This document shows, one piece after another, positions 11,973 through 39,962 of a stretch of 64,000 bases of DNA; position 1 is the stretch's first letter; each line of letters opens with the position of its first letter. The stretch comes from Legionella jordanis (lineage in GTDB: Bacteria > Pseudomonadota > Gammaproteobacteria > Legionellales > Legionellaceae). The translations under genes and the position numbers were made by a program. Under the pieces are notes generated by a model, which did not search any database, had not been told where the DNA came from, and saw only the letters and a list, made by a program, of their open reading frames with translations. The stretch lies in NCBI RefSeq assembly GCF_900637635.1, contig NZ_LR134383.1, forward strand, positions 2,920,001-2,984,000. Reading direction: 5' to 3'.

Positions 11973-12329
11973 CTAATGTCTGGCACGGTTAGGTAACGCT
12001 CCGTAATATTTGTGAATGGAAGCTCCCCAAGTTGGATTTGACATATCGGGCCAGTGATGTTTGTCAAAACCCGGGGAATTTTTCAGAGTTTCCTTATCCA
12101 CCGCAATAATGAAGCAATCTTTTTTATCGTCGTAAGTAAAAATACTCCAAGGCATTGCAAATAATTTATCCCCCATGCCTAAAAAGCCGCCAAAAGACAA
12201 TACAACATAGGACACAAAACCCTCATACTTATCTAACATCAGGGCTTCAACTTTGCCCAAATCCTCACCTTGCAAATTTTGCACTTTTACACCGACAACA
12301 TCATCGGCATTTACAATTTGACTAGGCAT
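11973..12329 (-). CDS. PRC-barrel domain protein
   Basis: 118 residues. The N-terminal half (VVGVKVQNLQGEDLGKVEAL, then YVVLSFGGFLGMGDKLFAMPW) is a PRC-barrel, a small beta-barrel found in RimM, photosynthetic reaction-centre H subunits and many stress-cluster proteins. No membrane segment. Very strong SD AAAGGAGG. Lies between the BON and SDR genes with short gaps, so the three probably form one transcript. Molecular function unknown. Confidence 0.87.
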   Translation of the reverse strand: MPSQIVNADDVVGVKVQNLQGEDLGKVEALMLDKYEGFVSYVVLSFGGFLGMGDKLFAMPWSIFTYDDKKDCFIIAVDKETLKNSPGFDKHHWPDMSNPTWGASIHKYYGALPNRARH

Positions 12330-12340
12330 AGCAACCTCCT

Positions 12341-13024: not shown

Positions 13025-13411
13025 AGTTATATTCCTGTATTCATGTTTAAAGGTTCAATTGAGACTGAGTGTAGCTTTAGCTTTTAGACTTTGATAAGCA
13101 TGGCTTAGCAAAACCAACAGTGTAGTAGAAAGATTAACCAGAACTTATTTTTAAGCTTAATCCTCCTGCCTCAATTGCAAGCCATAGCTACTGCCAATTA
13201 ATTCTAAAAAGCAGTGTTTTTCCATGGTTAATCCCTAGTATGGCTTATTTTTAATCATAGTTGAAAATGCCTAATTGCGCAAAACTTGGCAAGATTATGG
13301 GAAGGATTTCCTTAGGTTCACTATTTATCAAAGTGCCTCTTTATTCAAAAAACAATTCATTTCCTATAATCAATATAAGTAAGTGTTGCGGAAATTAAAT
13401 AAGGACAGGTT
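13025..13411. promoter_or_regulatory. Divergent intergenic region before BON gene and Ku
   Basis: 387 bases without a gene. A perfect TATAAT at 13365-13370 on the plus strand, about 40 bases upstream of the Ku ATG, is a possible -10 element; no good -35 lies at the right distance. Otherwise AT-rich sequence in which I see nothing further. Confidence 0.35.
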
Positions 13412-14272: not shown

Positions 14273-14633
14273 TAAGCGTTGCCCCCTCAGAGCATACAGG
14301 AGAAATATTGATTTTCATTGGTTAACCTTTTAAAGGGAATGGAAGCCAATTAAATTTCTCAGCAACCACACGAATCATCAATGCTTGCCAGGCTAACTTT
14401 TTTAATAAACTCTCCATGCACTTGGATAGTGTTCGTTAAAGCTACCCAGCCAATTCAAAAATTACTCTCCAATACTTCTATATCCCTTGATGTAAAAAAT
14501 AGTTAGAATAATCTATCAGAATCAAACCATTATAAACAAATTCAGCTTTGTATTTAGTGTCGCCTGGCTTTGAGCAATGTTTGCCTCAGTGCCCGGCACG
14601 TTATTACTCTCACTATCTCTGTGTAAGGACACC
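14273..14633. other. Intergenic region, possible gene remnant
   Basis: About 360 bases between Ku and the repeat protein. On the minus strand a 31-codon ATG frame (about 14325-14420) reads as plausible protein (MESLLKKLAWQALMIRVVAE...), and the adjacent frame just upstream also reads sensibly, which could be a decayed gene. Nothing firm. Confidence 0.25.
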
Positions 14634-16919
14634 ATGATGAAGTTAAGCTCTTTTATTAATAAGATTATCCTTTTAATGTTAAGCAGCCTCGCTATAACAA
14701 TAGCCCATGCAGGAAGCCCTCTATGGACATTCACGGCTTTAACGGCGACCTCGCTGACAGTCCCGGTGACAGGTACTGCGTCTGTTAAGTATACGGTTAC
14801 CAACCAATCCAGCAAAGCACACACCCTGGCAATGAGGGCCATCCCCGGTATTACTCAGGTGACCACAGCAGGCAATTGCCCCAACCCCTTTATCTTGGCA
14901 GGGCACCAATCCTGCATCCTGAATTTAACTATTACAGGAAGTGCTTTGCCCGGAAACATTAGCGGCGGGCCTGTTGTATGTCAGGTAGGCAGTATTTCCC
15001 AATGCTATCAACCCAGCCCCGCTAGCAGTCTCCAAATTATTAAAGGAGATGCCCAATATACTGTAGGGGGTTCCGTCTTTGGCCTGCAAGGGACTCTGGT
15101 GTTGCAAAATAATGGGGCTGAAACAATAACAATGACTGCCGATGGCAGCTTTGTCTTTCCGGAGAGCTTCCAAAGCGGCAGTCATTATGCCGTCACCATT
15201 TTAAGCCAACCAGGGACACAAACCTGTACGGTAACCAATGGCAGTGGTGTCATTACTGATGCCAGTATCACCAATATAGTAGTTACTTGCTCGACCAACA
15301 GACGCACCATAGGTGGAACCGTGTCTGGCTTGTCAGGTACTGTCGTATTGCAAAATAATGGCACGGATGACCTAGCCATTACTAGCAATGGCTCCTTTAC
15401 CTTTCCCACTCCGCTAGCACAGGGTTCCACTTATAATGTGACCGTACTTTCCCAACCCGCGACCCAACACTGTACTGTGACCAATGCAAGCGGAACGGTT
15501 GGTGCAAGCAATGTCAGCAATGTCCAGGTTAGCTGTACTACCAATACGTTTACAATTGGTGGCACCGTATCCGGCTTAACTGGAACGGTAGTTTTGCAGA
15601 ATAACAACGGAGATAACAACAGCATCAGCAGCAACGGGCCTTTTACCTTCTCCACCCCTTTGCCTCAAGGGTCGACTTATAATGTGACTGTACTGTCTCA
15701 ACCTGCGGCCCAGCACTGTACAGTCACCAATGCTAGCGGAACGGTTGGTGCAGGCAACGTCACCAATGTCTTGGTTACCTGTGCTGCAAACACATATACT
15801 GTGGGTGGAACCGTATCCGGCTTAACCGGGACAGTAGTTTTGCAAAACAACAATGCCGATGACGAGAGCATCAGCAGCAATGGCCCATTTACCTTTTCTA
15901 CTCCTTTAGCTCAAGGCTCCCCTTACAATGTAACAGTACTCACCCAACCCGCAGGGCAAGTCTGTAATGTAAGCAATGGCAGTGGAACCATTGGAAGTGG
16001 GAATGTTACAAACGTTGCGGTAACCTGTATTGACTCCACCACCTTAACCACCAGCCTTACAGATTTGGCACTGTCAGTAAATAATACCGCTTTTAACCCC
16101 GCGTTAACCGGCAACCCGCGGATCATCACCATTACCAACGCCGGAAGCACCACAGCGACCGGTTTGACGGTCACCCCACCCACCTGGCCGAGTGGCACCA
16201 CAAGTTCTACCAATTGTGGAAGCACCCTGGGAAGTGGGAGTTCTTGCACCATTACCATTACCCCCGGCAATACGGCCACTTCCAATGGCACTACCCCTTG
16301 CACCAATGGCACCGCCCCCGTAGCAGGGGTAGTGCAGGTTTCAGCGGCTAATGCCACAGCTGTGTCGACCAACGTCGTTGTCTTAGGTTACGGCTGCGTT
16401 TATCAGGGGGGATTCTTGTTTGCCGTTAACGATGCAACAGCAAACACGGGCAGTATCGGGGGCCAGGTTGCGGCTACGACCAATGAAGGCAGCCTCTCAT
16501 GGTCAACCGTTTTCAGCATCACCGGCGTAAACAGCAATACCAATGGCGCTTCCAACACCGCCGCCCTGGCAACACCGGTAGGACAATTCCCAGCCGCCCA
16601 GGCATGCATCAATAAAACAACCCAGGGCTTTACCGACTGGTATTTACCGGCCATTTGTCAGATGGGATATGATGGGCAAAGTTTTGGCAGTGGTTGTGGT
16701 AGCTCAGGTAGCCCTTTACTTCAGAATATATATTCAAACTTAAGGGTAAACGGCAATATTGGTGGATTTGGTGTGGGCACTTTTTTCAGTTCCAGCGAAG
16801 ATACCAGTGTAAACCCAAACCTCTATGCCTGGACACAAAATTTCGCAGTTGGCTCTACCCAAGGCCAGTCGATTAAAACCAGTAACCCACAATCCATTCG
16901 ATGTGTCCGCAATTTTTAG
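14634..16919 (+). CDS. Secreted repeat protein with C-terminal DUF1566-like domain
   Basis: About 761 residues from the ATG at 14634 (SD AAGGA); a longer frame from 14577 lacks a ribosome site. A signal peptide (KLSSFINKIILLMLSSLAITIAHA) is followed by a beta-rich domain, four tandem 82-residue repeats, a Ser/Thr/Asn-rich stretch and a C-terminal domain with GFTDWYLPAICQMGYDG, typical of DUF1566/Lcl-type domains, ending SIRCVRNF. Cysteines are regularly placed in each repeat, fitting disulfides outside the cytoplasm. Likely an exported surface or adhesin-like protein; ligand unknown. Third positions are unusually GC-rich compared with neighbours. Confidence 0.82.
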   Translation: MMKLSSFINKIILLMLSSLAITIAHAGSPLWTFTALTATSLTVPVTGTASVKYTVTNQSSKAHTLAMRAIPGITQVTTAGNCPNPFILAGHQSCILNLTITGSALPGNISGGPVVCQVGSISQCYQPSPASSLQIIKGDAQYTVGGSVFGLQGTLVLQNNGAETITMTADGSFVFPESFQSGSHYAVTILSQPGTQTCTVTNGSGVITDASITNIVVTCSTNRRTIGGTVSGLSGTVVLQNNGTDDLAITSNGSFTFPTPLAQGSTYNVTVLSQPATQHCTVTNASGTVGASNVSNVQVSCTTNTFTIGGTVSGLTGTVVLQNNNGDNNSISSNGPFTFSTPLPQGSTYNVTVLSQPAAQHCTVTNASGTVGAGNVTNVLVTCAANTYTVGGTVSGLTGTVVLQNNNADDESISSNGPFTFSTPLAQGSPYNVTVLTQPAGQVCNVSNGSGTIGSGNVTNVAVTCIDSTTLTTSLTDLALSVNNTAFNPALTGNPRIITITNAGSTTATGLTVTPPTWPSGTTSSTNCGSTLGSGSSCTITITPGNTATSNGTTPCTNGTAPVAGVVQVSAANATAVSTNVVVLGYGCVYQGGFLFAVNDATANTGSIGGQVAATTNEGSLSWSTVFSITGVNSNTNGASNTAALATPVGQFPAAQACINKTTQGFTDWYLPAICQMGYDGQSFGSGCGSSGSPLLQNIYSNLRVNGNIGGFGVGTFFSSSEDTSVNPNLYAWTQNFAVGSTQGQSIKTSNPQSIRCVRNF
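15057..16040 (+). repeat. Four tandem 246-bp repeats inside the secreted protein gene
   Basis: Units begin at 15057, 15303, 15549 and 15795, each exactly 246 bp (82 codons). Each encodes TVGGTVSGLxGTVVLQNN at the start, a YNVTVLSQPA centre and a CTVTNASGTV / VTC end. Units 2-4 are closer to each other than to unit 1, suggesting recent duplication. Confidence 0.93.
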
Positions 16920-16939
16920 CGACAACTGTCTAGAATACC

Positions 16940-16973
16940 ACCAGGTCATTAATGACGGCTTTGATGGCCTGGT
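16940..16973 (+). terminator. Hairpin after the repeat-protein gene
   Basis: Inverted repeat ACCAGGTCAT / ATGGCCTGGT with one G-T pair, loop 14, about 20 bases after the stop. Only AT-rich, not a pure T-run, follows; a weak terminator candidate. Confidence 0.45.
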
Positions 16974-17135
16974 GAATAATTTAATTGCAAATTGCTCGTT
17001 TTAAATGGCAAAGTCTAATTGCTGAAGTGGCATAACCATGGCAGGAATTCAAAACCATAAATTGTTAGGAGTATCGATAAGCGATCAAAATTAACTGTCG
17101 ATTGCAGTTATGGCCAATTATTTCTTCAATTCCAT

Positions 17136-18054
17136 CTAATTGGCAAGATCAATTCCCTGATGTTTATAATAATTAATCAGTGGCTCAAAACAAGCAATTC
17201 CACCAGATTGAGCAACCCATTTCAGTGGTAATAATTATTGTTAGTGTCGCTTAGATAAGACAAAAAAATATTCTCAATTTCTGTGTCTTTCATAAGCCCT
17301 TCAATGCTTCATGCCGACCTGATTCCCATGAAATCAGACAGGTTTTCAGGTAAATTTGTTTAGAGTTTTTAATAGCCTTCGATGCCCTTCTTCTAAAAGC
17401 ACTTCCAGTGATTTAGACGATTATCCCTTGCAGCTAATTTAAGACCACCTCTGGGTTCCTGGCTCCCCAATTGAATAGCAAACGAAGTTACTCTTCATAG
17501 TTTTGCATAGCAGCCATTGCTAAAGAGTCAAAATTATTATTGTTTTGGTGAGAACCTGGTTGATTTTATCAGGATGGCTAAATACATTGACGGTAAGGGG
17601 AAGGAGCTCATCATTATTTTGAGAAAAAATCTGCGGCAATATTTTTTTAGCGAGGAGCGATTCGTTGCTAGCAATATAGATTTTACCTTGACTGGGATCA
17701 TAAACTCTAAACTCGCCATTCACCACGGGAGTCGCAATAGTATGAGTTGGGCTAGCCACTGTCATTGCAATTTCATTAGTTTTTAAATGTTTAAAGATTT
17801 GTCCCCAAACCGATGGACTGGCTACCAGTCCAAGGTCATATTGTTTAGCCATTGCCTTGGGTGGCGCAGCAGTTGCACTTTCAATTTTTAATAAAGAACC
17901 TGCATCATCCTGACAGAGTTTTTTATTAAATACCTGGGATAAAAAATGCATATAGGACTTTAGCAAAATTTCTCAAGTCACTATTTCTTGCAGACGATTC
18001 CATGGGGACGTGGCTTTTTATTTTTGCTTTAGAAATTCTAGAGGCTTCATCCAC
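17136..18054 (-). pseudogene. Decayed ankyrin-repeat protein gene, possibly an effector
   Basis: Read on the minus strand from 18054, the sequence encodes continuous protein only if frames are switched. Part 1 (VDEASRISKAKIK ... NFAKVLYAF) joins FLSQVFNKKLC if one T of the T6 run near 17941-17946 is removed. The 17520-17951 frame holds a domain with HTIATPV...EFRVYDPSQG, resembling the His/Asp part of YopT/C58 cysteine peptidases. Adding one A near 17545 continues into FDSLAMAAMQNYEE, a stop, then LRLLFNWGA, an ankyrin unit. Further frames give GGLKLAARDNRL, then SLEVLLEEGH, then LKWVAQSGGIACFEPLINYY and the final stop at 17136. So at least five lesions. The ancestor was probably about 300 residues. 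Called from reading, not alignment; no catalytic Cys is evident. Confidence 0.75.
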
Positions 18055-18288
18055 TATTATTATAATTCTGTAGTGACTTTTTAAGTGAATAAAATCGGGA
18101 AGATTCTCCTAGACTAGATGAATTTTGTTAAATTAATGATTAGCAAGACTAGGAATGAAGAAGAATTTTACCTCCTAAGGCGTCATAAACCAGGAGTGCG
18201 TTAGAAATGGGAAGCTACTGTTGCAAAGATAACCTTGCTCCTTGACCTTAGGCCTGTTTACAATCAACTATTTACGCCGGTATTTAAA

Positions 18289-18762
18289 ATGGATTTTCTG
18301 ATAAATGTTAATTCCAATCCTGGGATTTTGTATGTGATGCTTCGCTCCTTACTGTTGTTCGCCCTAAGTGTCATTTTAATACGTTATGGTAATCGCCGTT
18401 TCAACTTAAGCACAGGCTTTGATTATTTGTTGTTGGTTATCCTAGGTTCCGTCATTAGCCGTGGGATCAATGGTTCCGCCACTCTTTTAAGCAGCGCTGT
18501 AGCCACAGTCAGCCTTGTTGTTTTTCATCGGCTTATCGCGGTGGCTACTTTCTATTTTAAGAATATTGAATGTTTCTTTAAAGGAGAATCCCATCTGATT
18601 ATTAAAGATGGCAAAATTTTGTTTCATCAATTGAGAAAATATCACATTACAGAAGCGGATCTGTTCTCATCCATGCGAAGTACCATTCACAGTGATGATC
18701 CAAGAGAAATAGCCTTTGCTTACCTGGAAGGTACCGGAAAAATTTCTTTCGTAAAAAAATGA
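18289..18762 (+). CDS. DUF421/YetF-like membrane protein
   Basis: About 157 residues. Two or three membrane segments at the N-terminus (YVMLRSLLLFALSVILIRYG, then YLLLVILGSVISRG) followed by a cytoplasmic domain with LIIKDGKILFHQLRKYHITEADLFSSMR, the YetF C-terminal pattern. YetF-type proteins are membrane proteins induced by stress or during sporulation in other bacteria; the role here is unknown. I prefer the ATG at 18289; a TTG at 18235 would add 18 residues. Neither has a strong SD. Confidence 0.8.
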   Translation: MDFLINVNSNPGILYVMLRSLLLFALSVILIRYGNRRFNLSTGFDYLLLVILGSVISRGINGSATLLSSAVATVSLVVFHRLIAVATFYFKNIECFFKGESHLIIKDGKILFHQLRKYHITEADLFSSMRSTIHSDDPREIAFAYLEGTGKISFVKK

Positions 18763-25357: not shown

Positions 25358-25526
25358 AATAAATGCACTTAATGCTGTGTTTATAGATAAATAATAATAC
25401 ATTCCCCTGCATTAAAGAATAATTATTGTACTTTTTGTAAAAATTTATTGTCAGCTTTCCGTTAAAACATTTGAACCCAGTAGCAGGATGAATTATTGTG
25501 TGTCAGGCATCTTCATAGGAGAAAGC

Positions 25527-26759
25527 ATGTTTGGAATAAAAGGCGCAGGAAGTACAAACACCCAGCAACCTAAAATTGAGTCTGAAACAGAAAATCTGTT
25601 ATTTGATTTACCTCAGGAATTGTTTGATGCTTTTCAAAGAGAAGGTTTTTTAATAGAACCCTCTAATCCTGCATTTACTTTCCCAGAGGATGCTTCTACC
25701 TTGCAGTCTCATGGAGATGCAATGGCTGGACTAACTCTACCTTTAGTTGGGCATTTAGAATCACAAGAGAGCGGTCCCCCTCGGAAACGAAAGGCGCCAG
25801 ACAACTCTCCTCCAGAGAATACAGTCAAAAATGCATCAACCCCAACATTCTCTTCTGTTTATCGCCGCAAATGGGTCTATTTGGATTTGATGCCGAGGGC
25901 CATTCCCTTAAAGGAGAAATTCGTACCCGAATCATTCTACCCACAAAACAATGGGCATGCGCGAGTGAAACAACCCTATACATTACCGTGCGGGAGGCAA
26001 ATCATCACGCTTGGTTATTGGTATTACTTGAATTCAAAACAAAAAATAAAATATAGATTTGACAATGGTGAACCTATTCCAGCAGAACGAATAACCGATT
26101 GGGTCAAAGCCGTTAGACAATTGGATGGCCGAAAAATAATTACTGAAGAGGCATTTTTTATTAGAAAATTCCGCCTTGTGAGCACGCCTTCACAGGTTTT
26201 ACCGCGCGAGGAGGTCCGCCGCCATCTTAAATACAATCCTCATGACGGGAAATGCTATGTGAATGGTCAAGAAGTAACCTGGGGAGCTCTCAGCAGAATA
26301 CCAAAAAGCTTTCAAGAGCAACTGCTAACCACTTCGCAACTCCTGCCGTCTCCGTCCATTCCTGTCTTAACAGCACCAATGCAAGCACATCCATTTGAAA
26401 TGAATTTAAGTGTAGATAGTGGGCAATTTGGTTCAGTGGAATGCCTGGCAGAGGAGCATCAGGAATCAATACACCTTCAGTTTGGAAATAATCCTCCCCC
26501 ACAAACCAATGCCGATCTCCCAAGTCCCATTCAAGCTTCGCCCATTGATACTATCCCAATGACTCCAGAAAGACGGCAACAAATAGAGAATAAATTAAGG
26601 GAAATTCATAGCCCCTTTTATCCGGCTAGATTTTACTCCCATCTTGCCTATGGACAACAACTGCAAACTCCAACTTTTTTTGCCTCAAAAAATCAATTAG
26701 CCTTTTCAAAGCAGAACTCCGAAATGCCGGAGTCAGAATTCAGCGTGAATACGCTTTAA
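25527..26759 (+). CDS. Hypothetical protein with monopartite NLS-like motif, candidate effector
   Basis: 410 residues from the ATG at 25527 (SD GGAG, seven bases). Disordered N-terminus, then PPRKRKAPDN at about residues 96-105, a classic monopartite NLS. A folded central part (about 120-280) contains WVYLDLMPRAIPLKEKF, GYWYYLNSKQKIKYRF and VRRHLKYNPHDGKCYVNG; I do not recognise the family. The C-terminal third is Pro/Gln/Ser-rich and ends in an acidic E-block type tail (EMPESEFSVNTL), as seen in Dot/Icm substrates. Divergent from the other NLS gene across about 170 bases. Confidence 0.62.
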   Translation: MFGIKGAGSTNTQQPKIESETENLLFDLPQELFDAFQREGFLIEPSNPAFTFPEDASTLQSHGDAMAGLTLPLVGHLESQESGPPRKRKAPDNSPPENTVKNASTPTFSSVYRRKWVYLDLMPRAIPLKEKFVPESFYPQNNGHARVKQPYTLPCGRQIITLGYWYYLNSKQKIKYRFDNGEPIPAERITDWVKAVRQLDGRKIITEEAFFIRKFRLVSTPSQVLPREEVRRHLKYNPHDGKCYVNGQEVTWGALSRIPKSFQEQLLTTSQLLPSPSIPVLTAPMQAHPFEMNLSVDSGQFGSVECLAEEHQESIHLQFGNNPPPQTNADLPSPIQASPIDTIPMTPERRQQIENKLREIHSPFYPARFYSHLAYGQQLQTPTFFASKNQLAFSKQNSEMPESEFSVNTL

Positions 26760-29395: not shown

Positions 29396-30700
29396 CTAAA
29401 GATTTGCTGGTTGTTGGCAGGAAGTTTCATAACCATGCTGTTTCATCGCATCACAAATTTCATTGGCCAGCAGCTGATGGGCATGGGTTGTCGGATGTAT
29501 TTCATCCCAAAACAAATAACTCTCAGGATTATCACAAAGGTGATAATTCTTTTCATTAGGTCCAAAATGGCTATCGCGATATTGCAAAACTTGCGCATAC
29601 TGCAGAACATAATTATGGGCAAACGGAGAGTTTGCAAAAGCATGAAACATGGGAAACTTAATATCAATGCAAGCATCCGTAATATTGCTAAAGCCATATT
29701 TTTGTGGCTCATTTAAGGCTTTTTGCAAATACTGTTGTAAATCAATGTACAGAAAATCAACTTCAGAATACTGTTCGCGCCACTCTGCAACTCGTTGTTG
29801 CAGACGTTGATTATGTTGCTCAACAGCCGCCGCTAACACAGGCCTGTCGGTTGTTTGCACGAATTTCGGTGTAATGCCAATATTTGGCAACCCCATCACC
29901 ACAACGTGCCGGGCTCCAGCCTTCACCAACTTGTGAACGCCTGAAGAAATGCCATCCAATACATTATCAATGTAGAAATTCATAACTGCGGGATTGTAAT
30001 TGTCTTCAAAAACCAACACATTGAGATAATCATTTGCCCCGGTTAATACAAAATAGACGGTCCTATCATCCAAAGATTCATTCATCATCAAATAAGCCTG
30101 TACCGTTAAACCAAGGCTTGGCGGTATTAATTTTCCAACGATTAAGGTTTTTAACGTAGCAAGCGGATGGCGAATAAGGTTCCAAGTGGTTACTTGATAA
30201 TCATAGGTTACAGCCCAGCTGCCTCCGAACGCTTGGTTGCTGTAGAAATGTGCATCCTCGCGATCAATGCCAATCATGGGCGCCAGGTATTCATTCCATA
30301 CCCGACCGTTGGAGAACCGGGATTGCCAATAAGGCTCACCAGGAAGGACCGGTACTTTCTTCACTTTGCTTACCAAATTGGCCAAAAATGGGCCGAATTC
30401 CGTATCAAAAAAATTGGTGACGATTTCGACACCAGCATCCAAAACCACTTGTGGGACGTAGTACTCAGTCGCGAACTCTTCCATTTTATTGAGCACAAAG
30501 ACTTTTAAAGGGCGAACAAGATAGGCAGGACTTTCGTCTTGCCGCAAACTTTTTAACAAATGGGTGGTATTTCCAATATCAGACAAACTGTCGCCGAATA
30601 CCACCATCGATTTAATGGATTTAGATGCAAAAAGAGTCATAGGCAAACAAAGAACCACTAACCCCACCCAATAGCACATCCTAGTGCAATGTGATGACAT
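29396..30700 (-). CDS. plaC: Secreted GDSL-family lysophospholipase/acyltransferase (PlaC-like)
   Basis: 434-residue exported lipase of the SGNH/GDSL family. A signal peptide (about residues 1-25, ending LFASKS) precedes the GDSL block VVFGDSLSDIGNT (nucleophile Ser), a later TGANDY block and DEIHPTTHAH (catalytic Asp-His), in family order. Four C-terminal Cys, including YHLCDN and CDAMKQHGYETSC, suggest disulfides. Length and blocks resemble Legionella PlaC, a glycerophospholipid:cholesterol acyltransferase that is activated by the protease ProA; the symbol is provisional. A perfect TTGACA (30853-30858, minus) lies about 150 bases upstream, in the gap after the NRPS. Confidence 0.8.
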   Translation of the reverse strand: MSSHCTRMCYWVGLVVLCLPMTLFASKSIKSMVVFGDSLSDIGNTTHLLKSLRQDESPAYLVRPLKVFVLNKMEEFATEYYVPQVVLDAGVEIVTNFFDTEFGPFLANLVSKVKKVPVLPGEPYWQSRFSNGRVWNEYLAPMIGIDREDAHFYSNQAFGGSWAVTYDYQVTTWNLIRHPLATLKTLIVGKLIPPSLGLTVQAYLMMNESLDDRTVYFVLTGANDYLNVLVFEDNYNPAVMNFYIDNVLDGISSGVHKLVKAGARHVVVMGLPNIGITPKFVQTTDRPVLAAAVEQHNQRLQQRVAEWREQYSEVDFLYIDLQQYLQKALNEPQKYGFSNITDACIDIKFPMFHAFANSPFAHNYVLQYAQVLQYRDSHFGPNEKNYHLCDNPESYLFWDEIHPTTHAHQLLANEICDAMKQHGYETSCQQPANL

Positions 30701-30903
30701 AATCTCTCCTTAGATTAAAAATCCCACCTGTTATTCCAACACGGAGGGGGGACTCTCCCTAGTTGACACTCAGTCAAAGCATGTTTAGGGGAGTTTTGGG
30801 GAAAGAATGCTTTCTCCAATATTCTACTAGATTAGATGCTGCATTAAATTTTTGTCAATATGGTTAGAAACAGTAAAATTAGAGCGATTCCTCTTTATCT
30901 CCT

Positions 30904-33900
30904 TTAAATTTTTGTCATTGAAAATTCGATGAATGCGGCCAGAACTTCCTCATTTATTTCAGGATTAACCGAAGGCTTCCCTTGCTCCAAAGTGGCCAAC
31001 ATATTGCTGTTGTCAATATCACGTGGAGCAACCAGGCTGTAGAAATCTCGTTCTTTTCTGGGGAAAATATCTTTCAGAGGAAAGAGGTAATTCTCTTGCC
31101 CTTCAATTTCAGGCACAGAGATTTGCTTTAACCACTCCTCATAAGGAAGGAGGTTTACTTTGCGGTATTTGCGCATGCTGCCGACAATGGTTTTAAAGGG
31201 AATGGCTTTGGAATTGAGCAAATTAAAACTGTCCCTTCCGCTTCCCAAGCGCATTTCCATTGCAACAAACTGGCTAATAAAATCAATGGGCACCAAATCC
31301 AAATTAAAATCCACATCAGGTACAGCGGCTAATTGCAAACAACCGCGAATGAATCGATAGAACAGATCATTTTCATTGCCAATCCCCGTTTGACTGTCCC
31401 CGGCAATGCGTGTTGGGCGATACACTTTAACTCTAAGACCCTGAGCCTTCGCCTCTTCTACAAGACATTCGGCCACCCATTTGGTTTGCGCATAGCCACC
31501 TTGTATAAATCCGGCTGAGTTAATGGCGCCTTCCTCAAAAAATGGTTTAGGTTTATTTCCTTCAACATCCCTCGGAACCACTGATAAGGTTGAAATATAA
31601 TGGACTGGTTTATGACGGGATAAGGCAGCGAATTTGAGAACTTCTGCAGTTCCATCCACATTCACCGCCGCAAGTTTTTGGTAATCATCTATAAAATTAA
31701 CCAGTGCGCCATTATGAACAATAACGTCAATGCGTTTAGACATTTCTAAATATTCACCAGCCTCCAGGCCAAATTGCGCTTCGGCCAAATCACCTAAAAC
31801 AGGGACAACGCGATCCAAATCAATCTTAAGCCTGTATTGCTGCGCTACTTTTTGAAGCCGTTTAAGCCCTGTTGCTGTATCGTCTGCCCTGACAAGCACA
31901 TAAATTGTGGCAGCCGGAAAGGTCTGCAATAAATCACGAAGAAGGTAAACACCTAAAAAGCCCGTCCCACCCGTCAGGAAAATAGTTTCAAAAGGCTTAT
32001 CTACACAGTCACCCAGAGGGGTTAACTGTAATTGGGGACAAATTTGCTTTAACTCTGCCGTTGATTTTCTATCTTCAAGCGACGGTTTAGTTTTTCCATG
32101 CTGCTCAATCCAGAGAGCATTATCCCGAATGGTTGGATTTTGATACAATTCTTTTACTGTAAAGTGGCAACCCAATTGTTGATTAAGATCATAAACGAGC
32201 TTTACCGCTAATAAAGAGTGTCCTCCCAAATCAAAAAAATTCTCTTGTGGAGCAATAGAGTCCATAGCAAATAGGGACTGCCAAATTGCATGGACCTTTT
32301 TCTCCGTCTCCGTTTGCATGGCTGTTGCCGAAGTGCCATTTCGCAGCCCATGATCGGGAGCAGGTAAACCCACGCGATCGACCTTACCGCTAGGTAACAG
32401 TTTCATTGCCTTAAGCGAGTAAAATAAAGAAGGAATCATATAATCGGGCAGGCGGTTTCTTAATTCTTCCTTGATTTTTTCTGCTGCAATGGCTGATACA
32501 TAATAAGCCACCAGCAGTTGTTGGCCATGACATTCCACCGCTTTGACCACCGCATTGTTCACTCCAGGTATCTGCAAAATACAAGTTTCAATTTCTTCAA
32601 GCTCGATTCGGTTTCCCCTCAGTTTAATTTGGTGATCCTTTCGCCCCACAAACTCGATGTTTCCTTCAAATGAAAGTTTGACCAGATCTCCGGATTTATA
32701 GAGTGTTTCATTGGGATTTAAGGGATTTGCAATAAATTTGCTTTCAGTTTGCCTGAGGTCATTTAAATAGCCTTTCCCTACAGCAACCCCGGCAATATGC
32801 AATTCACCGACCACTCCTTGTGGAACCACCTTTAGCTGAGAATCAAATATATAGGCTCTGGTATTTAGAATCGGACGCCCGATGGGAACATAATCTTTCT
32901 CCATGTCCTCATCACATTTGAAAACCGTCATGCTGATGGAGCATTCCGAGGGGCCATAAGTGTGATATAGGATGGCCTTGGTTTTTTGAAAAAATTGCCT
33001 ATTGATGACTTTGGACAAGCGCTCGCCCCCGCAAATAACATAACGCAAGGAATCAAGAGCGTGTTCTGGGGCCATCTCTAAAATCATACTAAGCAGTGAA
33101 GGGACAAAATAACAGACTGTAATCTGCTGTTGTTTAATGACTTTCGCCAGGCATTCGGGATTTTTATGGGCATTAGGAGGAGCCATGATTAAAGTGGCCC
33201 CGTGACAAATGGGCCAAAAAATTTCCAGAATGGAAGGGTCAAAACTCAATGTCGTTTTATGTAAGACCCGATCAGATTCGCCAATTTGACAGAGATTTTG
33301 TGACGATTGAATACGGTTTAGGACACCTCTGTGAGTATTTAATGCCCCTTTTGGTTGCCCCGTCGAACCGGAGGTAAACATGATGTAGGCTATCTCATTC
33401 TCTCTGCTTTGAAGCGCTTGGCTGTGGGAATAATCTCGACTTGCGAGTTTAGGCCATAGCTGCTCTACATTTATAGTCTGCTCAGCACAGAATAGCGGCA
33501 TGAATGATGCCTGGGTAAAAATCCTATAGGGTTTTGCATTTTCAAGAATCAATTCAATTCTTTTTTTAGGATGGTTTAAGTCCAAAGGCAAATAAACGCA
33601 GCCTGCCTTTAGAATTCCAAGCAGAATCACCAAGAGCTCAACATTTCTTTCCATGTAGACGGCAATGATTGCATTGTGAGGGACATTTTGCTCCAGGAGA
33701 TAGTTAGCCATTTGACTGGAGCGTTTATCCACTTCCTCATAAGTTAAGCATTGCCTTTCATCCTGCACACATATTCTCTTGGGAGTGGCTTGGGCTTGCT
33801 GTTGAAACTTCCCATGCAGGCTTGTATCAGACGAATAGTCCAGAACGTCTCCCTGCAGGAGGTGCAATATTTTGGTTTTTTCCTCTTCGGCTAAAAGCTC

Positions 33901-36900
33901 TATATCGGTCAACAGAGGATTTCCCTCGCTGCAAAAAGCCTCTAGCGCCCTTACAAAATGCCGTGAAAACTGTTCTATGAACTGCTCTTGGAATAACTTT
34001 TTGGAGTAACAAAAATTTAAGGCAATCTTGTTATCAAGCAAATTGATTTTCAAAGTTAAGTCCGTACGTGCCGATTCCTCAATATCCAGCCATTCAATGG
34101 AGTTGATTTGTGCCACATCAATCTTTTCTAGCGAACCGAGCTTTTGCAGGACAAGCATCACCTGAAACATGGAGTGACGGTGATTATCCTGATTTCTCGA
34201 GATGATTTTCAAAACCTCATCAAAAGGCAGGTCTTGATTTTGCAATGCTTCAAGGCAATTTTTTCGACAATGTGCAAGCCAGTCATGGGCATGAAATGTT
34301 TCATTTACTTGATGGCGCGTGATAATGGTGTTTACAAAAAAGCCAATGATCTCTTCTAAACCTTGATGGTGACGATTGGATGCTGGACTAGCTACTAAAA
34401 TATCCTTCTGATCAGAGTATTTCCAAATTAAAAACGATAACACTGTATTGAAAAAAATAAACAAAGAAACATTGTGTTGTTGCGTGGTTTTATAAATGGC
34501 TTCACAGAGCTCAGGGCTTAGATGTTGCTGAATACTGCCAACAGGGTTGCCTTTAATGAATGGGCCGGCTTGTGTTGGCAGCTGGGCTGGATTTAAATCA
34601 CTGAGTTTTTCCCGCCAAAACTGCTTTTGTCTGTCCATAGCCCCTGATTCGAAGGCTTGCTTCTGCCAAAGAGCGTAATCAATATACTCCAATTTCGGAG
34701 ATTTCAATTCCGATGAGTTCTTTTGAAGTAAATCGTCATAAATTTTAAACAATTCAGGCAAGAATATTCGATTACAAGACCAGAAATCGATGAGGATGTG
34801 ATGAAAATTAAAGAACAACAAATAGGCTTCAGGTTCATATTGATATACCAGAGCCCGAAACGCAGGGGCTCTTTGCAAGTCAAAGCTTTGTGAAAGCTGC
34901 ATCTGCATGTCCTGCAATGCCATTCCCCTGCTCATCTGCCGGCTTGTAATGGTGACTTTCAGCTGGGGTTGAATCACTTGTTGTAAGCCTTCCGCATCAA
35001 ATAGCCAAGATGTTCTAAACATGGCATGCTGTTCGATTAATACATTGAGTGAGTCTTGCAATCGCTGAATATTTAATTTCCCCTTGATATCCAAAACGAC
35101 CGGAATATTATAATTTATGGCTCCTGAGCCCTCATAATGGTGAATATAATGGAGTCTTTTTTGTGCATATGAGGCTGGGTAAATGCCTTTATCGTTGCGA
35201 GGATATGCTGTAATTTTTCCACTAAGTTGCATTCCTGTCTCGACTTCAGACTTGCTCAATTCATCCTGCTGGAATGACAATTGCGACAATAAAAAACGGG
35301 ATAATTTTCTTATGGTTGGATGGTTAAATGCCAAGGCAGGATCCAGTTGAATTCTTCCACCCAATGCCGACTGTATACCACATTGCAGTTCAACGGCACT
35401 GAGTGAATCAATCCCCAGAGTAAACAATCCGCTATCAACGTCAATCGGATGTTCCGGGGGAACATTTAATAACTGCCTACTTAATCCCACTATCAATTCA
35501 CAAAGCTTCGCCTCTCTATGCTTGGGTTTGCTTTGCTTTAAAATGCCCCACCAATCTGTTTCAATCCCCTCGTCGGTTGAAGCCGCTTGCCTGGCTTGTT
35601 CGCTGAATTTACTTTCTTCTGGTGCTGAATCATTCGATTGATAAATGTGCAAGGGCACGATGATTTTTTCTGTTATCTCTTCCTGACATTTAATTCGTTG
35701 CAACTTACCACTGGTTGTCTTGGGAATAGCTTTCGGGGGAACTAATAAAACCTGGTAAGGACTGAGATGAAATTGATTGCTGATTTCACTCAAAATGTTC
35801 TGGACAATTTCGCCGTAGGATTTACTGGCGGTACCGGCTTTGATTTCGGCAACAATATGCAAAGCTTCTTTGCCATGCACCAACTCAGAGTATGCTACCA
35901 CACAACCTTTACGGACAGCATGATGTGAATAAGCAGCGGCTTGCTCAAAATCATGAGGGTAGTAATTTTGACCATTGATAATGATTAAATTTTTTAAACG
36001 CCCGCAAACAAACAGTTCACCTTCATGCAAAAAACCCAAATCACCCGTTCGAAGATAATGCCTGTTCTCTTGCTCAGGAACTTGCGCTTTAAAAATGCTG
36101 GTGCTTTCTTCATGTTGATTATAATAACCTGTAGCAACTGAGCGGCCTGCTACCCATATTTCTCCGACTTCATCCTCTTTGCAAAGTGCGTGCGTTTTGG
36201 GATTAATCACTCGCACCAGCATTTGCGGCACTCCAGAGCTTACCAATTGCAGTCCGCCTTCCTGGTTGCTAATGCGCTCGACAATGTTGTCTTTAAGCCG
36301 GTGGGTATCAACCGTGATAATATTTTCTTCTTTGGAAAAAGGCTTGGCCGAAACCATCAGGGTGGACTCAGCCAGACCATAGCAGGGTAAAATAACTCCC
36401 CGCTTTAAGCCCGCAACCTTGAAACTGTCATAGAAAAACTGCATGGCTTTGAAAGAAATGGGCTCAGCTCCGTTGGCAATGGCTCGAATGGAACTTAAGT
36501 CTAATTTTCTAATCAAACTTTCCGGTGTTTTACGCGCACAAAGTTCAAAGGCAAAGTTAGGTGCGCCACTTATGGTGCATTGATAATCGGATAAATGTTT
36601 AACCCAACGTGAGGGTTTGCTAATGAAATCCACCGGAGACATAAGCGTTGCAACCGTTCCGGCATAAAGAGGCTCTAGAATGCAGCCAATTAACCCCATA
36701 TCGTGATAGGGTGGTAACCAGGAAAACGTATGGCTTTCGCTGGTGAAATTGACCGCTTGGTGAATAATTGCCAAGTTGCTTAATAAATTGGCATGGCTCA
36801 GCATAACTCCTCGAGGATGCCCTGTGGAGCCGGAAGTGTACTGCAGGAAAGCAATATCTTCAGGCTTAACTAACGGACAGGGAAAATGTTCTCCTGAATA

Positions 36901-37476
36901 TTCAGAGCGCACTTCGGTAGAAACAATGGGTGTTTTGCTTTTTTTAATGGCTTGGAATACAGCAGACAAGGCTTCAGAAATACCCAGATAATGTTGTATG
37001 CGGTGATGTAGGAAACGATTAGCTACCAAGCCTTTTTTCATGAGACGTGCCGTTTGAGGATCAGCCAGAATGAGTTTAGGCTTGGCATTGTTAAAAACAT
37101 GAAGAAATCTGGTCGCCATCATGGCATTTGCGGGAGGGAATATGGGAACGGCAATTGCCCCAACCCGTAAACAGGCATAGAAACTGATTATAAATTCCAA
37201 TCCAGGTTTGGCAGCAACAATAATTCTATCACCCTTCACGACGTACTTACTTAGATAATGGGCCAGCTTTTTAACCTGTCTTTGCAATTCTCGTGCAGTC
37301 AATGACTCGGCTCGGTCCTCATCAACTAAAAACCGATACACGATTTTTTCCGGTTGAAGCAGGCTTTGGTAATCGACCACGTCGTTTAAAGTTTGGTAAA
37401 TCGGATGCAGTGCTAAATTTTGCTCAAGATTACTTTGGTGAAATTCATAGGCTTCTTGTAAAAGATCAGCACTCAT
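30904..37476 (-). CDS. Lipo-initiating NRPS: FAAL-PCP-C-A-PCP-reductase
   Basis: 2190 residues. Domains in order: fatty-acyl-AMP ligase (about 1-600; YTSGSTGHPRG near 212), carrier 1 (Ser in GIDSLSAVE near 690), condensation (about 760-1190; HHILIDFW near 890), adenylation (about 1215-1710; MFTSGSTGQPKG near 1365, GRKDHQIKLRG), carrier 2 (GGHSLLAV near 1750) and a terminal reductase (about 1825-2190; GGTGFLG and YAQTK). Predicted chemistry: a fatty acid is activated, joined to one amino acid and released by NAD(P)H reduction as an N-acyl amino aldehyde or alcohol. SD AAGGAG eight bases before the ATG. No phosphopantetheinyl transferase is visible nearby. Confidence 0.93.
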   Translation of the reverse strand: MSADLLQEAYEFHQSNLEQNLALHPIYQTLNDVVDYQSLLQPEKIVYRFLVDEDRAESLTARELQRQVKKLAHYLSKYVVKGDRIIVAAKPGLEFIISFYACLRVGAIAVPIFPPANAMMATRFLHVFNNAKPKLILADPQTARLMKKGLVANRFLHHRIQHYLGISEALSAVFQAIKKSKTPIVSTEVRSEYSGEHFPCPLVKPEDIAFLQYTSGSTGHPRGVMLSHANLLSNLAIIHQAVNFTSESHTFSWLPPYHDMGLIGCILEPLYAGTVATLMSPVDFISKPSRWVKHLSDYQCTISGAPNFAFELCARKTPESLIRKLDLSSIRAIANGAEPISFKAMQFFYDSFKVAGLKRGVILPCYGLAESTLMVSAKPFSKEENIITVDTHRLKDNIVERISNQEGGLQLVSSGVPQMLVRVINPKTHALCKEDEVGEIWVAGRSVATGYYNQHEESTSIFKAQVPEQENRHYLRTGDLGFLHEGELFVCGRLKNLIIINGQNYYPHDFEQAAAYSHHAVRKGCVVAYSELVHGKEALHIVAEIKAGTASKSYGEIVQNILSEISNQFHLSPYQVLLVPPKAIPKTTSGKLQRIKCQEEITEKIIVPLHIYQSNDSAPEESKFSEQARQAASTDEGIETDWWGILKQSKPKHREAKLCELIVGLSRQLLNVPPEHPIDVDSGLFTLGIDSLSAVELQCGIQSALGGRIQLDPALAFNHPTIRKLSRFLLSQLSFQQDELSKSEVETGMQLSGKITAYPRNDKGIYPASYAQKRLHYIHHYEGSGAINYNIPVVLDIKGKLNIQRLQDSLNVLIEQHAMFRTSWLFDAEGLQQVIQPQLKVTITSRQMSRGMALQDMQMQLSQSFDLQRAPAFRALVYQYEPEAYLLFFNFHHILIDFWSCNRIFLPELFKIYDDLLQKNSSELKSPKLEYIDYALWQKQAFESGAMDRQKQFWREKLSDLNPAQLPTQAGPFIKGNPVGSIQQHLSPELCEAIYKTTQQHNVSLFIFFNTVLSFLIWKYSDQKDILVASPASNRHHQGLEEIIGFFVNTIITRHQVNETFHAHDWLAHCRKNCLEALQNQDLPFDEVLKIISRNQDNHRHSMFQVMLVLQKLGSLEKIDVAQINSIEWLDIEESARTDLTLKINLLDNKIALNFCYSKKLFQEQFIEQFSRHFVRALEAFCSEGNPLLTDIELLAEEEKTKILHLLQGDVLDYSSDTSLHGKFQQQAQATPKRICVQDERQCLTYEEVDKRSSQMANYLLEQNVPHNAIIAVYMERNVELLVILLGILKAGCVYLPLDLNHPKKRIELILENAKPYRIFTQASFMPLFCAEQTINVEQLWPKLASRDYSHSQALQSRENEIAYIMFTSGSTGQPKGALNTHRGVLNRIQSSQNLCQIGESDRVLHKTTLSFDPSILEIFWPICHGATLIMAPPNAHKNPECLAKVIKQQQITVCYFVPSLLSMILEMAPEHALDSLRYVICGGERLSKVINRQFFQKTKAILYHTYGPSECSISMTVFKCDEDMEKDYVPIGRPILNTRAYIFDSQLKVVPQGVVGELHIAGVAVGKGYLNDLRQTESKFIANPLNPNETLYKSGDLVKLSFEGNIEFVGRKDHQIKLRGNRIELEEIETCILQIPGVNNAVVKAVECHGQQLLVAYYVSAIAAEKIKEELRNRLPDYMIPSLFYSLKAMKLLPSGKVDRVGLPAPDHGLRNGTSATAMQTETEKKVHAIWQSLFAMDSIAPQENFFDLGGHSLLAVKLVYDLNQQLGCHFTVKELYQNPTIRDNALWIEQHGKTKPSLEDRKSTAELKQICPQLQLTPLGDCVDKPFETIFLTGGTGFLGVYLLRDLLQTFPAATIYVLVRADDTATGLKRLQKVAQQYRLKIDLDRVVPVLGDLAEAQFGLEAGEYLEMSKRIDVIVHNGALVNFIDDYQKLAAVNVDGTAEVLKFAALSRHKPVHYISTLSVVPRDVEGNKPKPFFEEGAINSAGFIQGGYAQTKWVAECLVEEAKAQGLRVKVYRPTRIAGDSQTGIGNENDLFYRFIRGCLQLAAVPDVDFNLDLVPIDFISQFVAMEMRLGSGRDSFNLLNSKAIPFKTIVGSMRKYRKVNLLPYEEWLKQISVPEIEGQENYLFPLKDIFPRKERDFYSLVAPRDIDNSNMLATLEQGKPSVNPEINEEVLAAFIEFSMTKI

Positions 37477-37835
37477 ACTGCATTCTCCTTATTTGTACTG
37501 CTTTGAGAATTCATGATTAGATTTTTCTCGAAAGATTTGATTCGTGGGCAGGGTGTTTTAAATATTGGATAGCAAGAAAGTCGGCAAACTAATAAAAAGG
37601 GCTGCCTCTCTGTATGTTTTTGTTCAATTTGCATGAACAAAAATTCATACCATTTCTTGATTTCTTGAAAGTATTTTGACTTGACTGCTGAGCTGAAATT
37701 GAAATGCATATCCACATTGTAAGATTACACATTCCATTTGCTAACCAACCTTTTCTCCCAGAAAAGGATTAATTATTCTCACCATCAAAATTACTCAATT
37801 CCAAGTAATTCGTCATAGACAGTCGAACTTGATTT
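37477..37835. other. Intergenic region upstream of the NRPS gene
   Basis: 359 bases. Holds the NRPS ribosome site (AAGGAG) and presumably its promoter. An 80-codon GTG frame (37473-37715) shares four bases with the NRPS start but has no SD and no protein-like features. Apart from AT-rich sequence I see nothing else. Confidence 0.4.
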
Positions 37836-38921
37836 CTAAAGTCTAGTATATTTATTTTCATTTGCTAGAAAATTTGCATTAATTGCCAATGGGGCTGAGA
37901 AAAAGTGATTCAGAGCCTTAACAATTCCTATGGATTCTTTCACAATATTTTTTGTCACCAGATCCGCATGAGCAATCATTTTAGTAATTGCCAAATGATT
38001 ATCAATTCGCCGGTGGGTCAATTCTTCAGCCAAAAGGCAGCTGTTTTCAGGTGAAAAAATGGGGTCAGTATAAGCGTGAATTAGGGTTATTTTGGATTGG
38101 ATTTTAGACAAGCAATCGTCATACTTTGATTTATTCACGATGTCATTAAAAGAGGACTGCAATTCTTCATCAATAAATCCTGTTTTTCCTAGGTTTTGAA
38201 TGAATTTTAGTAACCTTTTACTTTTGGGTGATTCTTTTGCAATAAAATTGAGTATGTGATGAGAGTCACTGGCTTCAAATTTGTTTTTAAGGCAGTAATC
38301 AATTGCTCGATTAAACAGCAAAAGCTCTTCGCCAAAATGTTTGCTCGGCTGTTGCTCAAATTCACTAAATAGCATCATTTTGAGCATGACCAATTGCGCA
38401 TAGAAGCTTCTTGGTGTCTCAAGCAATTCCCTAAAATGAGTACCTGGGTCAAAATATGGACTGATAAAACACAATGAATCAACCTTTCTTTTAAGCCCTG
38501 GATTCGCCGCTACTTTGCTCATGTATAAACAAGAAGTAGAGGGTCCAATATACGAGATATTTTTATAATTGTTGATTGTTTCGGCAAAATGATTGAGGTA
38601 ATTAGTCACAGCATCATAATCTTCTTGGCGAGGGGGGCGAAGCTCTATTTGCGCTTGCAGTTGAAGCAACAAACAATCATAGCCAATTGCCGTTAAACCA
38701 TTCACAAATCCATAATATCTTTGGTCAGCATTTCCTTGTTGATTTGCCCCATGAAACACCACCATTAAACCTTTTTTCTTTTTCCGATTGTTTGCAAAAT
38801 AATTCGCCGAACACCCTTGGAAATCAACCGTGGTGAATGATGGAGAACTCTTGGTTTGTCGGGTTAATTTGGTTAGAAATATTAAAGAATCTAATGTTTT
38901 TAAGGATTTAACTGACGACAT
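37836..38921 (-). CDS. Alpha/beta-hydrolase-like protein with GPSTS nucleophile elbow
   Basis: 361 residues, same strand as the NRPS, its upstream neighbour. An alpha/beta-hydrolase core is readable: VVFHGANQQGN (HG oxyanion strand), ISYIGPSTSCLYMS (nucleophile elbow, GxSxS instead of GxSxG), HAYTDPIFS (acid) and MIAHADLV (His). A central insert holds the lid. No signal peptide. Because it stands beside the NRPS it could be an accessory hydrolase or thioesterase, but the 359-base gap argues against a shared transcript. Function unproven. Confidence 0.6.
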   Translation of the reverse strand: MSSVKSLKTLDSLIFLTKLTRQTKSSPSFTTVDFQGCSANYFANNRKKKKGLMVVFHGANQQGNADQRYYGFVNGLTAIGYDCLLLQLQAQIELRPPRQEDYDAVTNYLNHFAETINNYKNISYIGPSTSCLYMSKVAANPGLKRKVDSLCFISPYFDPGTHFRELLETPRSFYAQLVMLKMMLFSEFEQQPSKHFGEELLLFNRAIDYCLKNKFEASDSHHILNFIAKESPKSKRLLKFIQNLGKTGFIDEELQSSFNDIVNKSKYDDCLSKIQSKITLIHAYTDPIFSPENSCLLAEELTHRRIDNHLAITKMIAHADLVTKNIVKESIGIVKALNHFFSAPLAINANFLANENKYTRL

Positions 38922-39041
38922 TTGTTGCCCACCATTGACTTAAAAATTTTTAATAACTTTAAGTATAGATTAGCCAAACAAAGTTAGAGTTTTTTTGCAT
39001 GCAGAGAATTCAGCTACACATTTCATTGGCTGAGTTTAGGC

Positions 39042-39587
39042 TTAAATTTCTGGCTTCCATTCATTCTCAAAATCAGGAGAATCGTTAACTAGAAAATAAG
39101 CAGCAGCACGCTCTTCATTATCCTTTTGAATTTTATTTTTTATCTGCTGGATTGTCTCATCGATACCAGCAAAAATAAAATCGGCGTATTTTCCTTGCGA
39201 TTGCAAGTGGTAGGCCTGAGTAAGCTCGACTACGGTGTCAGCAAGATTGATTTTGTAATAGTTGCAAGCACTGGCTCTTAGATTCAATTCCTGATTGGCT
39301 AAAAGATATTTTACTACTTTCATTTGTGGAGTAAGCACAGTAACTGCTGTTTGGCCAACTACAGAAGCCTTTCTTAATAGTACACCATGGAGCTCAGGCT
39401 TTTCTTGGACCAATTTTTCAGCCTCAACTGAATCAACTTCTTTGTAATGAGGATGATTTAAAATGTCCCAGGGTATTTCAGCGCCAGTAGGTATTGAACT
39501 TAAGCCGCTTTTATGCGCCGCAGCAATTTGTTCCGGGGTTGGTTCTTGCCATTTTTCAGATTGCAACCATTCAAATTTTTTTTTCAT
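39042..39587 (-). CDS. Hypothetical protein, about 181 aa
   Basis: Soluble, no signal peptide. Starts MKKKFEWLQSEKWQEPTPEQ; a TTG nine codons upstream is less likely. A central LHGVLLRKASVVGQTAVTVLTP and an acidic, helical C-terminus (ERAAAYFLVNDSPDFENEWKPEI) are visible. Spacing from SD GGAG is nine bases. Family not recognised. Convergent with no partner; stands alone between the hydrolase and the DUF6496-type gene. Confidence 0.65.
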   Translation of the reverse strand: MKKKFEWLQSEKWQEPTPEQIAAAHKSGLSSIPTGAEIPWDILNHPHYKEVDSVEAEKLVQEKPELHGVLLRKASVVGQTAVTVLTPQMKVVKYLLANQELNLRASACNYYKINLADTVVELTQAYHLQSQGKYADFIFAGIDETIQQIKNKIQKDNEERAAAYFLVNDSPDFENEWKPEI

Positions 39588-39733
39588 TTTGCCAAACTCC
39601 TCGATGATGTCCAAGGATAACCCAAAATGCGATTTATATCATCTTATTTCAACATTTTGCCCAAAATTAGTCATTTGTGAGCTTTTGTTATACTTAGAAA
39701 GAAGACATTGCAATGCATTTTGCAGGAGGAGGT

Positions 39734-39928
39734 ATGACAAGGAAATACAGCAAAGGTGTCCAGAAAGAAGTTGAGAAGGAAATGCACCGCTATAAAAAGG
39801 GAACTGCACACAGTGGCCCCGGTGACAAACATAAAGTACAAAGTCGAGAGCAAGCCATTGCTATTGGTTTATCCAAAGCCCGTGAAAAGGGGATGAAAGT
39901 ACCTAAACAATCTGAGAATGAAGATTAA
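39734..39928 (+). CDS. DUF6496-type small basic protein
   Basis: 64 residues from the ATG at 39734 (MTRKYSKGVQKEVEKEM); an in-frame ATG at 39713 is upstream of the GGAGGAGG SD, so unlikely. Blocks KKGTAHSGPGDKHKVQSREQAIAIGLSKAREKG fit the family of small Lys-rich proteins (KKEVEKVMHEFK ... RKQAIAIGLSEAR) of unknown role, common in stress-related or phage-derived contexts. The stop overlaps a terminator stem. Confidence 0.8.
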   Translation: MTRKYSKGVQKEVEKEMHRYKKGTAHSGPGDKHKVQSREQAIAIGLSKAREKGMKVPKQSENED

Positions 39929-39962
39929 GTAAGCAATAGCAGCTTGCTTACTTGTGTTTTTT
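39927..39962. terminator. Intrinsic terminator between convergent genes
   Basis: Perfect 9-bp stem AAGTAAGCA / TGCTTACTT (39927-39935 and 39945-39953), 9-base loop, followed on the plus side by GTGTTTTTT. Serves the small basic gene and, in mirror, smpB. Confidence 0.8.

What the first reader, a model, noticed from the sequence alone, without database searches (positions are those of the whole stretch)
30904..37476. Single-module lipo-initiating NRPS ending in a reductase
The order FAAL-PCP-C-A-PCP-reductase on one 2190-residue chain predicts a small N-acyl amino aldehyde or alcohol. Such a compact fatty-acid-to-aldehyde assembly line is unusual, and no tailoring, export or phosphopantetheinyl transferase genes surround it, apart from the hydrolase-like gene on its upstream side. 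The product could be a signal or protease inhibitor. The chemistry is inferred from domain order.
Basis: partly seen in the sequence, partly recalled or inferred. Interest (0 to 1): 0.75.

Follow-up and report, generated by a model that had tools for sequence, protein, structure and literature searches.

The report
One-protein maker of lipid-amino-acid aldehydes
A Legionella-type bacterium carries one very large enzyme that probably joins a fatty acid to one amino acid and releases it as an aldehyde or alcohol; every part is of a known type, but the whole enzyme was not found in the related genomes searched.

Summary
Window 30904-37476 (-) is one intact 2190-codon ORF: fatty acyl-AMP ligase, carrier, condensation, adenylation, carrier, thioester reductase. 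The residues named in the refutation test are present: both carrier serines and the reductase T/Y/K set. Best reading: a self-contained line making an N-acyl amino aldehyde, or the alcohol if the reductase acts twice. The product is inferred. It is less exceptional than proposed: published Legionella work already predicts acylated amino aldehydes/alcohols from single-module reductase-ended synthetases, and one genome-wide PPTase. This genome has one PPTase hit, so a missing local one means nothing. The upstream gene is a weakly supported alpha/beta hydrolase whose three intact relatives have no synthetase domains nearby; the downstream gene is plaC. The gene sits in a variable plaC-smpB interval. 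No other genome gave a match across the whole protein (0 of 142 others in the family, E<=1e-150; 0 of 368 others in a class sample, E<=1e-200). Its FAAL resembles Legionellaceae FAALs (45.9-54%); its reductase is only 28-34% like the family reductases aligned. Bench tests are referred.

The parts
30904..37476 (-). whole synthetase gene, 2190 aa, FAAL-PCP-C-A-PCP-R
35671..37395 (-). fatty acyl-AMP ligase (residues 28-602), K591; FAAL-specific insertion region about residues 365-415 (36232-36384)
   Evidence: the role of the lysine and the extent of the insertion are recalled
35272..35514 (-). first carrier domain (about residues 655-735), Ser691 in LGIDSL; boundaries approximate, set by eye
   Evidence: PP-binding, two stretches, only the other one given with coordinates; serine position
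33865..35187 (-). condensation domain (residues 764-1204), HHILIDF motif with His893
32365..33807 (-). amino acid adenylation domain (residues 1224-1704), Asp1413 and Lys1698; hand-read specificity code DPLYIGTISK (provisional)
   Evidence: code read by eye on the alignment to LgrA with recalled GrsA anchor positions
32122..32298 (-). second carrier domain (residues 1727-1785), Ser1754 in LGGHSL
31054..31986 (-). terminal thioester reductase (residues 1831-2141), Rossmann TGGTGFLG, T1963, Y1995, K1999
   Evidence: best solved-structure match MxaA reductase 4u7w, E 6.3e-65
37836..38921 (-). neighbour upstream on the same strand: alpha/beta-hydrolase-like protein, 361 aa; probably not part of the pathway
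   Evidence: Pfam Abhydrolase_1 below cut-off, low-confidence fold with alpha/beta-hydrolase PDB matches, homologue contexts
29396..30700 (-). neighbour downstream on the same strand: plaC, lysophospholipase/acyltransferase; not part of the pathway
   Evidence: NF045907 848.9 bits, cut-off 700; present in 7 other genus genomes that lack the whole synthetase

Best explanation
A self-contained, single-module lipo-initiating synthetase with reductive release. The FAAL activates a free fatty acid as acyl-AMP and loads it on carrier 1. The A domain activates one alpha-amino acid and loads it on carrier 2. The C domain joins them to N-acyl-aminoacyl-S-carrier 2. The reductase releases this with NAD(P)H as an N-acyl amino aldehyde, which may be reduced again to the N-acyl amino alcohol. 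Both carriers are primed by the genome's one PPTase, encoded elsewhere. Shown here: domain order, intact frame, catalytic motifs, one PPTase-family hit. Inferred: that all domains are active, the order of transfer, the product class. Unknown: fatty acid, amino acid, aldehyde versus alcohol, biological role.
For: Domain calls and order; FAAL match to solved FAALs including the insertion region; core motifs present; A-domain Asp1413 at the position that in known A domains binds the amino group (recalled), as expected for an alpha-amino acid; reductase matches the MxaA reductase at E 6.3e-65; one PPTase hit in the genome and published evidence that a Legionella parisiensis PPTase activates a foreign NRPS. 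The genome has only one other condensation-domain hit, about 1.5 Mb away, so hand-over to further modules is unlikely. Published predictions of N-acyl amino aldehyde/alcohol products from monomodular Legionella synthetases.
Against: The condensation motif is HHxxxDF; in a motif scan of fetched loci 44 of 65 matches were HHxxxDG, and only one other ended in DF (DHxxxDF in L110). This is softened, not removed: 4 of 7 C domains that follow a FAAL in the fetched loci also lack that Gly, having Leu, but three of these four are one close clade. The C domain and reductase sit on long branches (2.06 and 1.77), so function by descent is not assured. No NCBIfam FAAL model shown passes its cut-off. I have no expression or product data.
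Confidence: 0.72

Rival explanations
1. The condensation step is dead or slow, and the enzyme releases a free amino aldehyde that dimerises to a pyrazine, as A-T-R minimal synthetases do.
For: Unusual HHxxxDF motif; an A-T-R synthetase of Xenorhabdus indica makes a pyrazine this way (PMC7586950, passages).
Against: The second His of the motif, His893, is kept; the Gly after Asp is also missing in 4 of 7 other post-FAAL C domains; an intact FAAL-carrier would then have no use.
Confidence: 0.1
2. The line takes a chain brought in trans or hands its chain on, so the product is larger than one acyl and one amino acid.
For: FAAL-started, reductase-ended lines of several modules occur in the genus, e.g. 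G013 locus L054: FAAL-C-A-PCP-C-A-PCP on one frame, then a second frame with PCP-R.
Against: Only two condensation-domain hits in this genome, the other about 1.5 Mb away in a 1093-aa frame; the reductase is fused at the end of this chain.
Confidence: 0.08
3. A non-functional or neutral relic of horizontal transfer in a variable chromosomal site.
For: No whole-protein relative in 142 other family genomes; site content varies among relatives; long branches.
Against: 2190 open codons and the catalytic motifs kept; GC 0.427 and GC3 0.411 like the conserved neighbours, so no sign of recent import.
Confidence: 0.1

Closest known systems
Monomodular reductase-ended NRPSs of Legionella (clusters C and D of Tobias et al. 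2016, PMC5126622)
   Same: one module; for cluster C a terminal reduction domain is stated, with N-formyl amino aldehyde or alcohol (and oxazoline) predicted; for cluster D an acylated amino acid with similar products (Figure 6 legend)
   Different: those clusters are given as shared by two or more species; a fused FAAL-carrier start is not mentioned in the sections read; the synthetase here was not found whole in any other family genome searched
PvdL-type start of lipopeptide synthetases
   Same: the C-A-PCP region matches PvdL structures (9lcp, residues 764-1798); that PvdL starts with an acyl ligase and carrier is recalled, its acyl-ligase part was not in the match
   Different: here the chain ends in a reductase after one module instead of passing to further modules
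MxaA reductase and other C-A-PCP-R release modules
   Same: reductase matches the MxaA reductase (4u7w, E 6.3e-65); 34-42% identity to the 80 reductase loci kept, mostly cyanobacterial with some myxobacterial and others. That MxaA reduces to the alcohol is recalled
   Different: of those 80 loci, an FAAL-like domain and the reductase shared a frame in 3 (L110, L113, L127). L113 and L127 are ligase-carrier-reductase without C or A; only L110 also has C-A-PCP, with a ketosynthase-acyltransferase module between
Fragin/valdiazen HamD-HamF of Burkholderia (PMC5878181, passages)
   Same: A-T-R protein HamD and a free starter C domain HamF; valdiazen is a quorum signal
   Different: separate proteins plus tailoring enzymes; no FAAL fusion is described in the passages read

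Membership tests
Lipo-initiating NRPS with FAAL start | FAAL rather than acyl-CoA ligase, with the FAAL-specific insertion | tested here: met
   best solved-structure matches are FAALs 3kxw/3lnv, then 7r7e-g and FadD32-type; no large gap across the insertion region. Against: FAAL-type NCBIfam models shown are below their cut-offs. Loading of a carrier and not CoA was not assayed
Lipo-initiating NRPS with FAAL start | carrier domain with phosphopantetheine serine directly after the FAAL | tested here: met
   S691 in LGIDSL; two PP-binding stretches
Canonical NRPS module (C-A-PCP) | C domain with HHxxxDG | tested here: inconclusive
   HHILIDF: both His and Asp kept, Gly replaced by Phe
Canonical NRPS module (C-A-PCP) | A domain with core motifs, Asp for the amino group and A10 Lys | tested here: met
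   TIGR01733 548.7 bits; D1413, K1698
Reductase-terminated NRPS | C-terminal thioester reductase with Rossmann motif and T/Y/K set | tested here: met
   TIGR01746 271 bits over cut-off 213.35; motifs; MxaA alignment
Reductase-terminated NRPS | two- or four-electron release | not testable with these tools
   no reliable sequence rule known to me; needs product analysis
Legionella clusters C/D (Tobias 2016) | same gene and synteny as a named cluster | not tested
   Table S3 and figures not available; no whole-protein match in 142 other family genomes argues against it being a shared cluster

The most novel reading that the evidence does not exclude
A one-gene pathway, assembled by joining a Legionellaceae FAAL-carrier cassette to an unrelated C-A-PCP-reductase module, that makes an N-acyl amino aldehyde used against host or protist proteases or as a private signal.
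Probability: 0.12. Interest if true: 0.65.

Novelty: new variant of a known kind. Interest (0 to 1): 0.36.

Why it matters
If the product is as predicted, a single gene and one genome-encoded PPTase suffice to make a reactive or signalling lipid-amino-acid molecule, which would make it an unusually clean case for linking a Legionella-type synthetase to its product. It also marks the plaC-smpB interval as a place where accessory genes come and go. It opens no new class of chemistry.

Tried and rejected
The reductase and condensation trees do not place the window's domains: long branches, no starred set holds them. I did not conclude which organism gave the C-A-PCP-R half. Substrate prediction: the hand-read code DPLYIGTISK matched no code that I recall, so I predict no amino acid; no specificity predictor was on hand. 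Promoter-like sites were at chance (22 found, 23.0 expected) and terminator-like sites little above it (15 found, 10.7 expected, sd 3.5), so no operon claim is made.

Considered and rejected: that the upstream hydrolase is a dedicated thioesterase of the pathway (relatives in 4 of 139 other family genomes, one of them interrupted by stops; around the three intact ones none of the six synthetase domains gave a tblastn match at E 0.01, added on checking). That plaC belongs with the synthetase (7 other genus genomes have plaC, and no whole-protein match to the synthetase; in print PlaC is a type II-secreted effector, one of six found in 75-86% of Legionella species, PMC6617341, passages). That a missing local PPTase or exporter is telling; for exporters I only saw that none of the 17 neighbouring ORFs scanned within about 20.4-46.7 kb, besides the synthetase, matched a transporter family over its cut-off.

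Limits of the absence claims: at most two candidates per genome were scored, and only matches at E 1e-150 and 1e-200 or better were listed; weaker or split relatives would not show. Genomes are one per species; drafts among them are incomplete.

Literature: searches listed no title or abstract start on this gene or on a single-chain FAAL-PCP-C-A-PCP-R enzyme; the library lacks most subscription journals, only the top rows were listed, and the Johnston et al. 2016 Legionella paper itself was not listed, only papers that cite its title. Papers: PMC5126622 abstract, Results and Discussion; PMC11837247, PMC7586950, PMC5878181, PMC6617341 passages only; all others listing only.
Full report
What is there. 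The window's minus strand carries one ORF at 30904-37476, 2190 aa, ATG start, no internal stop. Pfam and NCBIfam give, in order, an AMP-forming ligase, a carrier, a condensation domain, an amino acid adenylation domain, a carrier and a thioester reductase. The first ligase aligns with fatty acyl-AMP ligases of solved structure, best with 3kxw/3lnv at E 1.3e-122 (residues 28-138 and 198-615), without a large gap across the stretch where these enzymes carry their specific insertion (that the insertion marks FAALs against acyl-CoA ligases is in PMC11837247, passages). The FAAL-type NCBIfam models shown score below their own cut-offs, so the name rests on the structure matches. Motifs are present in every domain: K591, S691, H893, D1413, K1698, S1754, TGGTGFLG at 1835-1842, T1963, Y1995, K1999 (the meaning of each position is recalled). 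The reductase's best solved-structure match is that of MxaA (4u7w, E 6.3e-65).

The one oddity is the condensation motif, HHILIDF instead of HHxxxDG. In a motif scan of the fetched loci 44 of 65 matches were HHxxxDG, and only one other ended in DF, in L110. Of seven condensation domains that directly follow a FAAL in those loci, four have Leu in place of that Gly, three of these four being close relatives. So the change does not by itself argue for a dead domain, but it is not cleared either.

Genome and neighbourhood. The genome is one 3,133,723-base contig. One PPTase-family hit exists in the genome, in a 249-aa frame about 0.86 Mb away, in line with a 15-genome Legionella study that found a single PPTase in each (PMC5126622). 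Condensation-domain hits: two, this one and one in a 1093-aa frame about 1.5 Mb away. The upstream gene 37836-38921 reaches alpha/beta-hydrolase models only below cut-off; a low-confidence model (mean pLDDT 60.4, four sequences) has hydrolases and related alpha/beta-fold enzymes as its 50 listed PDB matches, with query-normalised TM-scores of 0.36-0.46, so the fold is likely but not secured. Relatives occur in 4 of 139 other family genomes searched, one of them interrupted by stops; around the three intact ones (L057, L143, L144; 16.0, 16.6 and 19.0 kb) none of the six synthetase domains gives a match at E 0.01. Downstream lie plaC and then glmS (the name glmS is read from the Pfam domains).

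The site. Among 22 genus genomes, 8 including this one have plaC at E 1e-40 or better. In six of the seven others both plaC and smpB lie in the stretch fetched; the distance between them is 807, 9496, 7581, 2583, 5218 and 5626 bases, against 9247 here, and the largest start-to-stop frame inside those intervals is 593 aa. In the seventh (G020) smpB was not found in the stretch. So the synthetase lies in an interval whose content varies between species. Its composition (GC 0.427, GC3 0.411) is that of the conserved genes around it, while the hydrolase and the next ORF are lower in GC3 (0.334 and 0.330).

Relatives. No match across the whole protein was found in 142 other family genomes (matches at E 1e-150 or better listed) or in 368 others of a class sample (E 1e-200); at most two candidates per genome were scored in these calls. 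The longest matches in those lists are parts of other synthetases at 32-35% identity. The FAAL half has 45.9-54% identity to FAALs in Legionellaceae loci from six genomes. In the three of these scanned with Pfam it starts other kinds of lines: FAAL-PCP-C in G002, FAAL-PCP-ketosynthase in G105 and G012. In the class sample no other genome reached E 1e-130 with this FAAL, but the sample shows only three other genomes of the family. The reductase is 28-34% identical to the seven reductases aligned with it, five from Legionellaceae and two from other families of the class, and 34-42% to the 80 loci of the genome scan, mostly cyanobacterial; the highest pairwise value in the tree was 43%, to Archangium, with a cyanobacterial row nearest by path. 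Those 80 loci were chosen by similarity to this reductase, and it has a long branch (1.77), so I read this only as: its reductase is not a near copy of the family reductases fetched. A joining of a family FAAL-carrier cassette with an unrelated C-A-PCP-R module is a fair inference, not a result.

How it most likely works. Fatty acid to acyl-AMP to carrier 1; amino acid to carrier 2; amide formation by the C domain; NAD(P)H release as N-acyl amino aldehyde, perhaps on to the alcohol. The order of domains and their motifs are shown; the rest follows from what these families do. Which fatty acid and amino acid, and which oxidation state, I could not read from the sequence. NRPS aldehydes are often associated with protease inhibition (PMC7586950, passages), and a product of an A-T-R synthetase can be a signal (PMC5878181, passages); neither role has support specific to this gene.

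Known or new. Monomodular synthetases predicted to give N-formyl or N-acyl amino aldehydes, alcohols or oxazolines were described for Legionella in 2016 (PMC5126622). Reductase-ended synthetases are common here: at least 10 of 21 other genus genomes have a match reaching query residue 2060 or beyond (hand count from the truncated list). Of 80 reductase loci, an FAAL-like domain and the reductase shared one frame in three (L110, L113, L127; some loci are cut at their 5' end). By Pfam L113 and L127 are ligase-carrier-reductase, and only L110, from an Anaerolineales bacterium, also has C-A-PCP, with a ketosynthase-acyltransferase module between. So the layout is a compact variant of a known kind, worth a line in a catalogue, not a new system.

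Noticed in passing
L053 (G002) 5352-16171 and L055 (G124) 8167-18535: Clusters with two FAAL-PCP proteins and a reductase protein. In L053 the three proteins are FAAL-PCP-C, PCP-R, FAAL-PCP-C with no second AMP-binding stretch by Pfam; what they would join is unclear. L055 looks alike by tblastn only.
   Followed up: partly
window 30701-39947 and L043-L048: The plaC-smpB interval varies within the genus: 0.8 to 9.5 kb in seven genomes, with differing gene content.
   Followed up: partly
window 39042-39614: 190-aa ORF beside the hydrolase with no Pfam or NCBIfam match over cut-off and low GC3 (0.330).
   Followed up: no
L050 4220-8312 (G001): The closest FAAL by identity (54%) is split over two overlapping reading frames, so it may be a broken gene or an assembly error. 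Left as it is.
   Followed up: no
window 25488-26759: 423-aa ORF with no Pfam or NCBIfam match.
   Followed up: no
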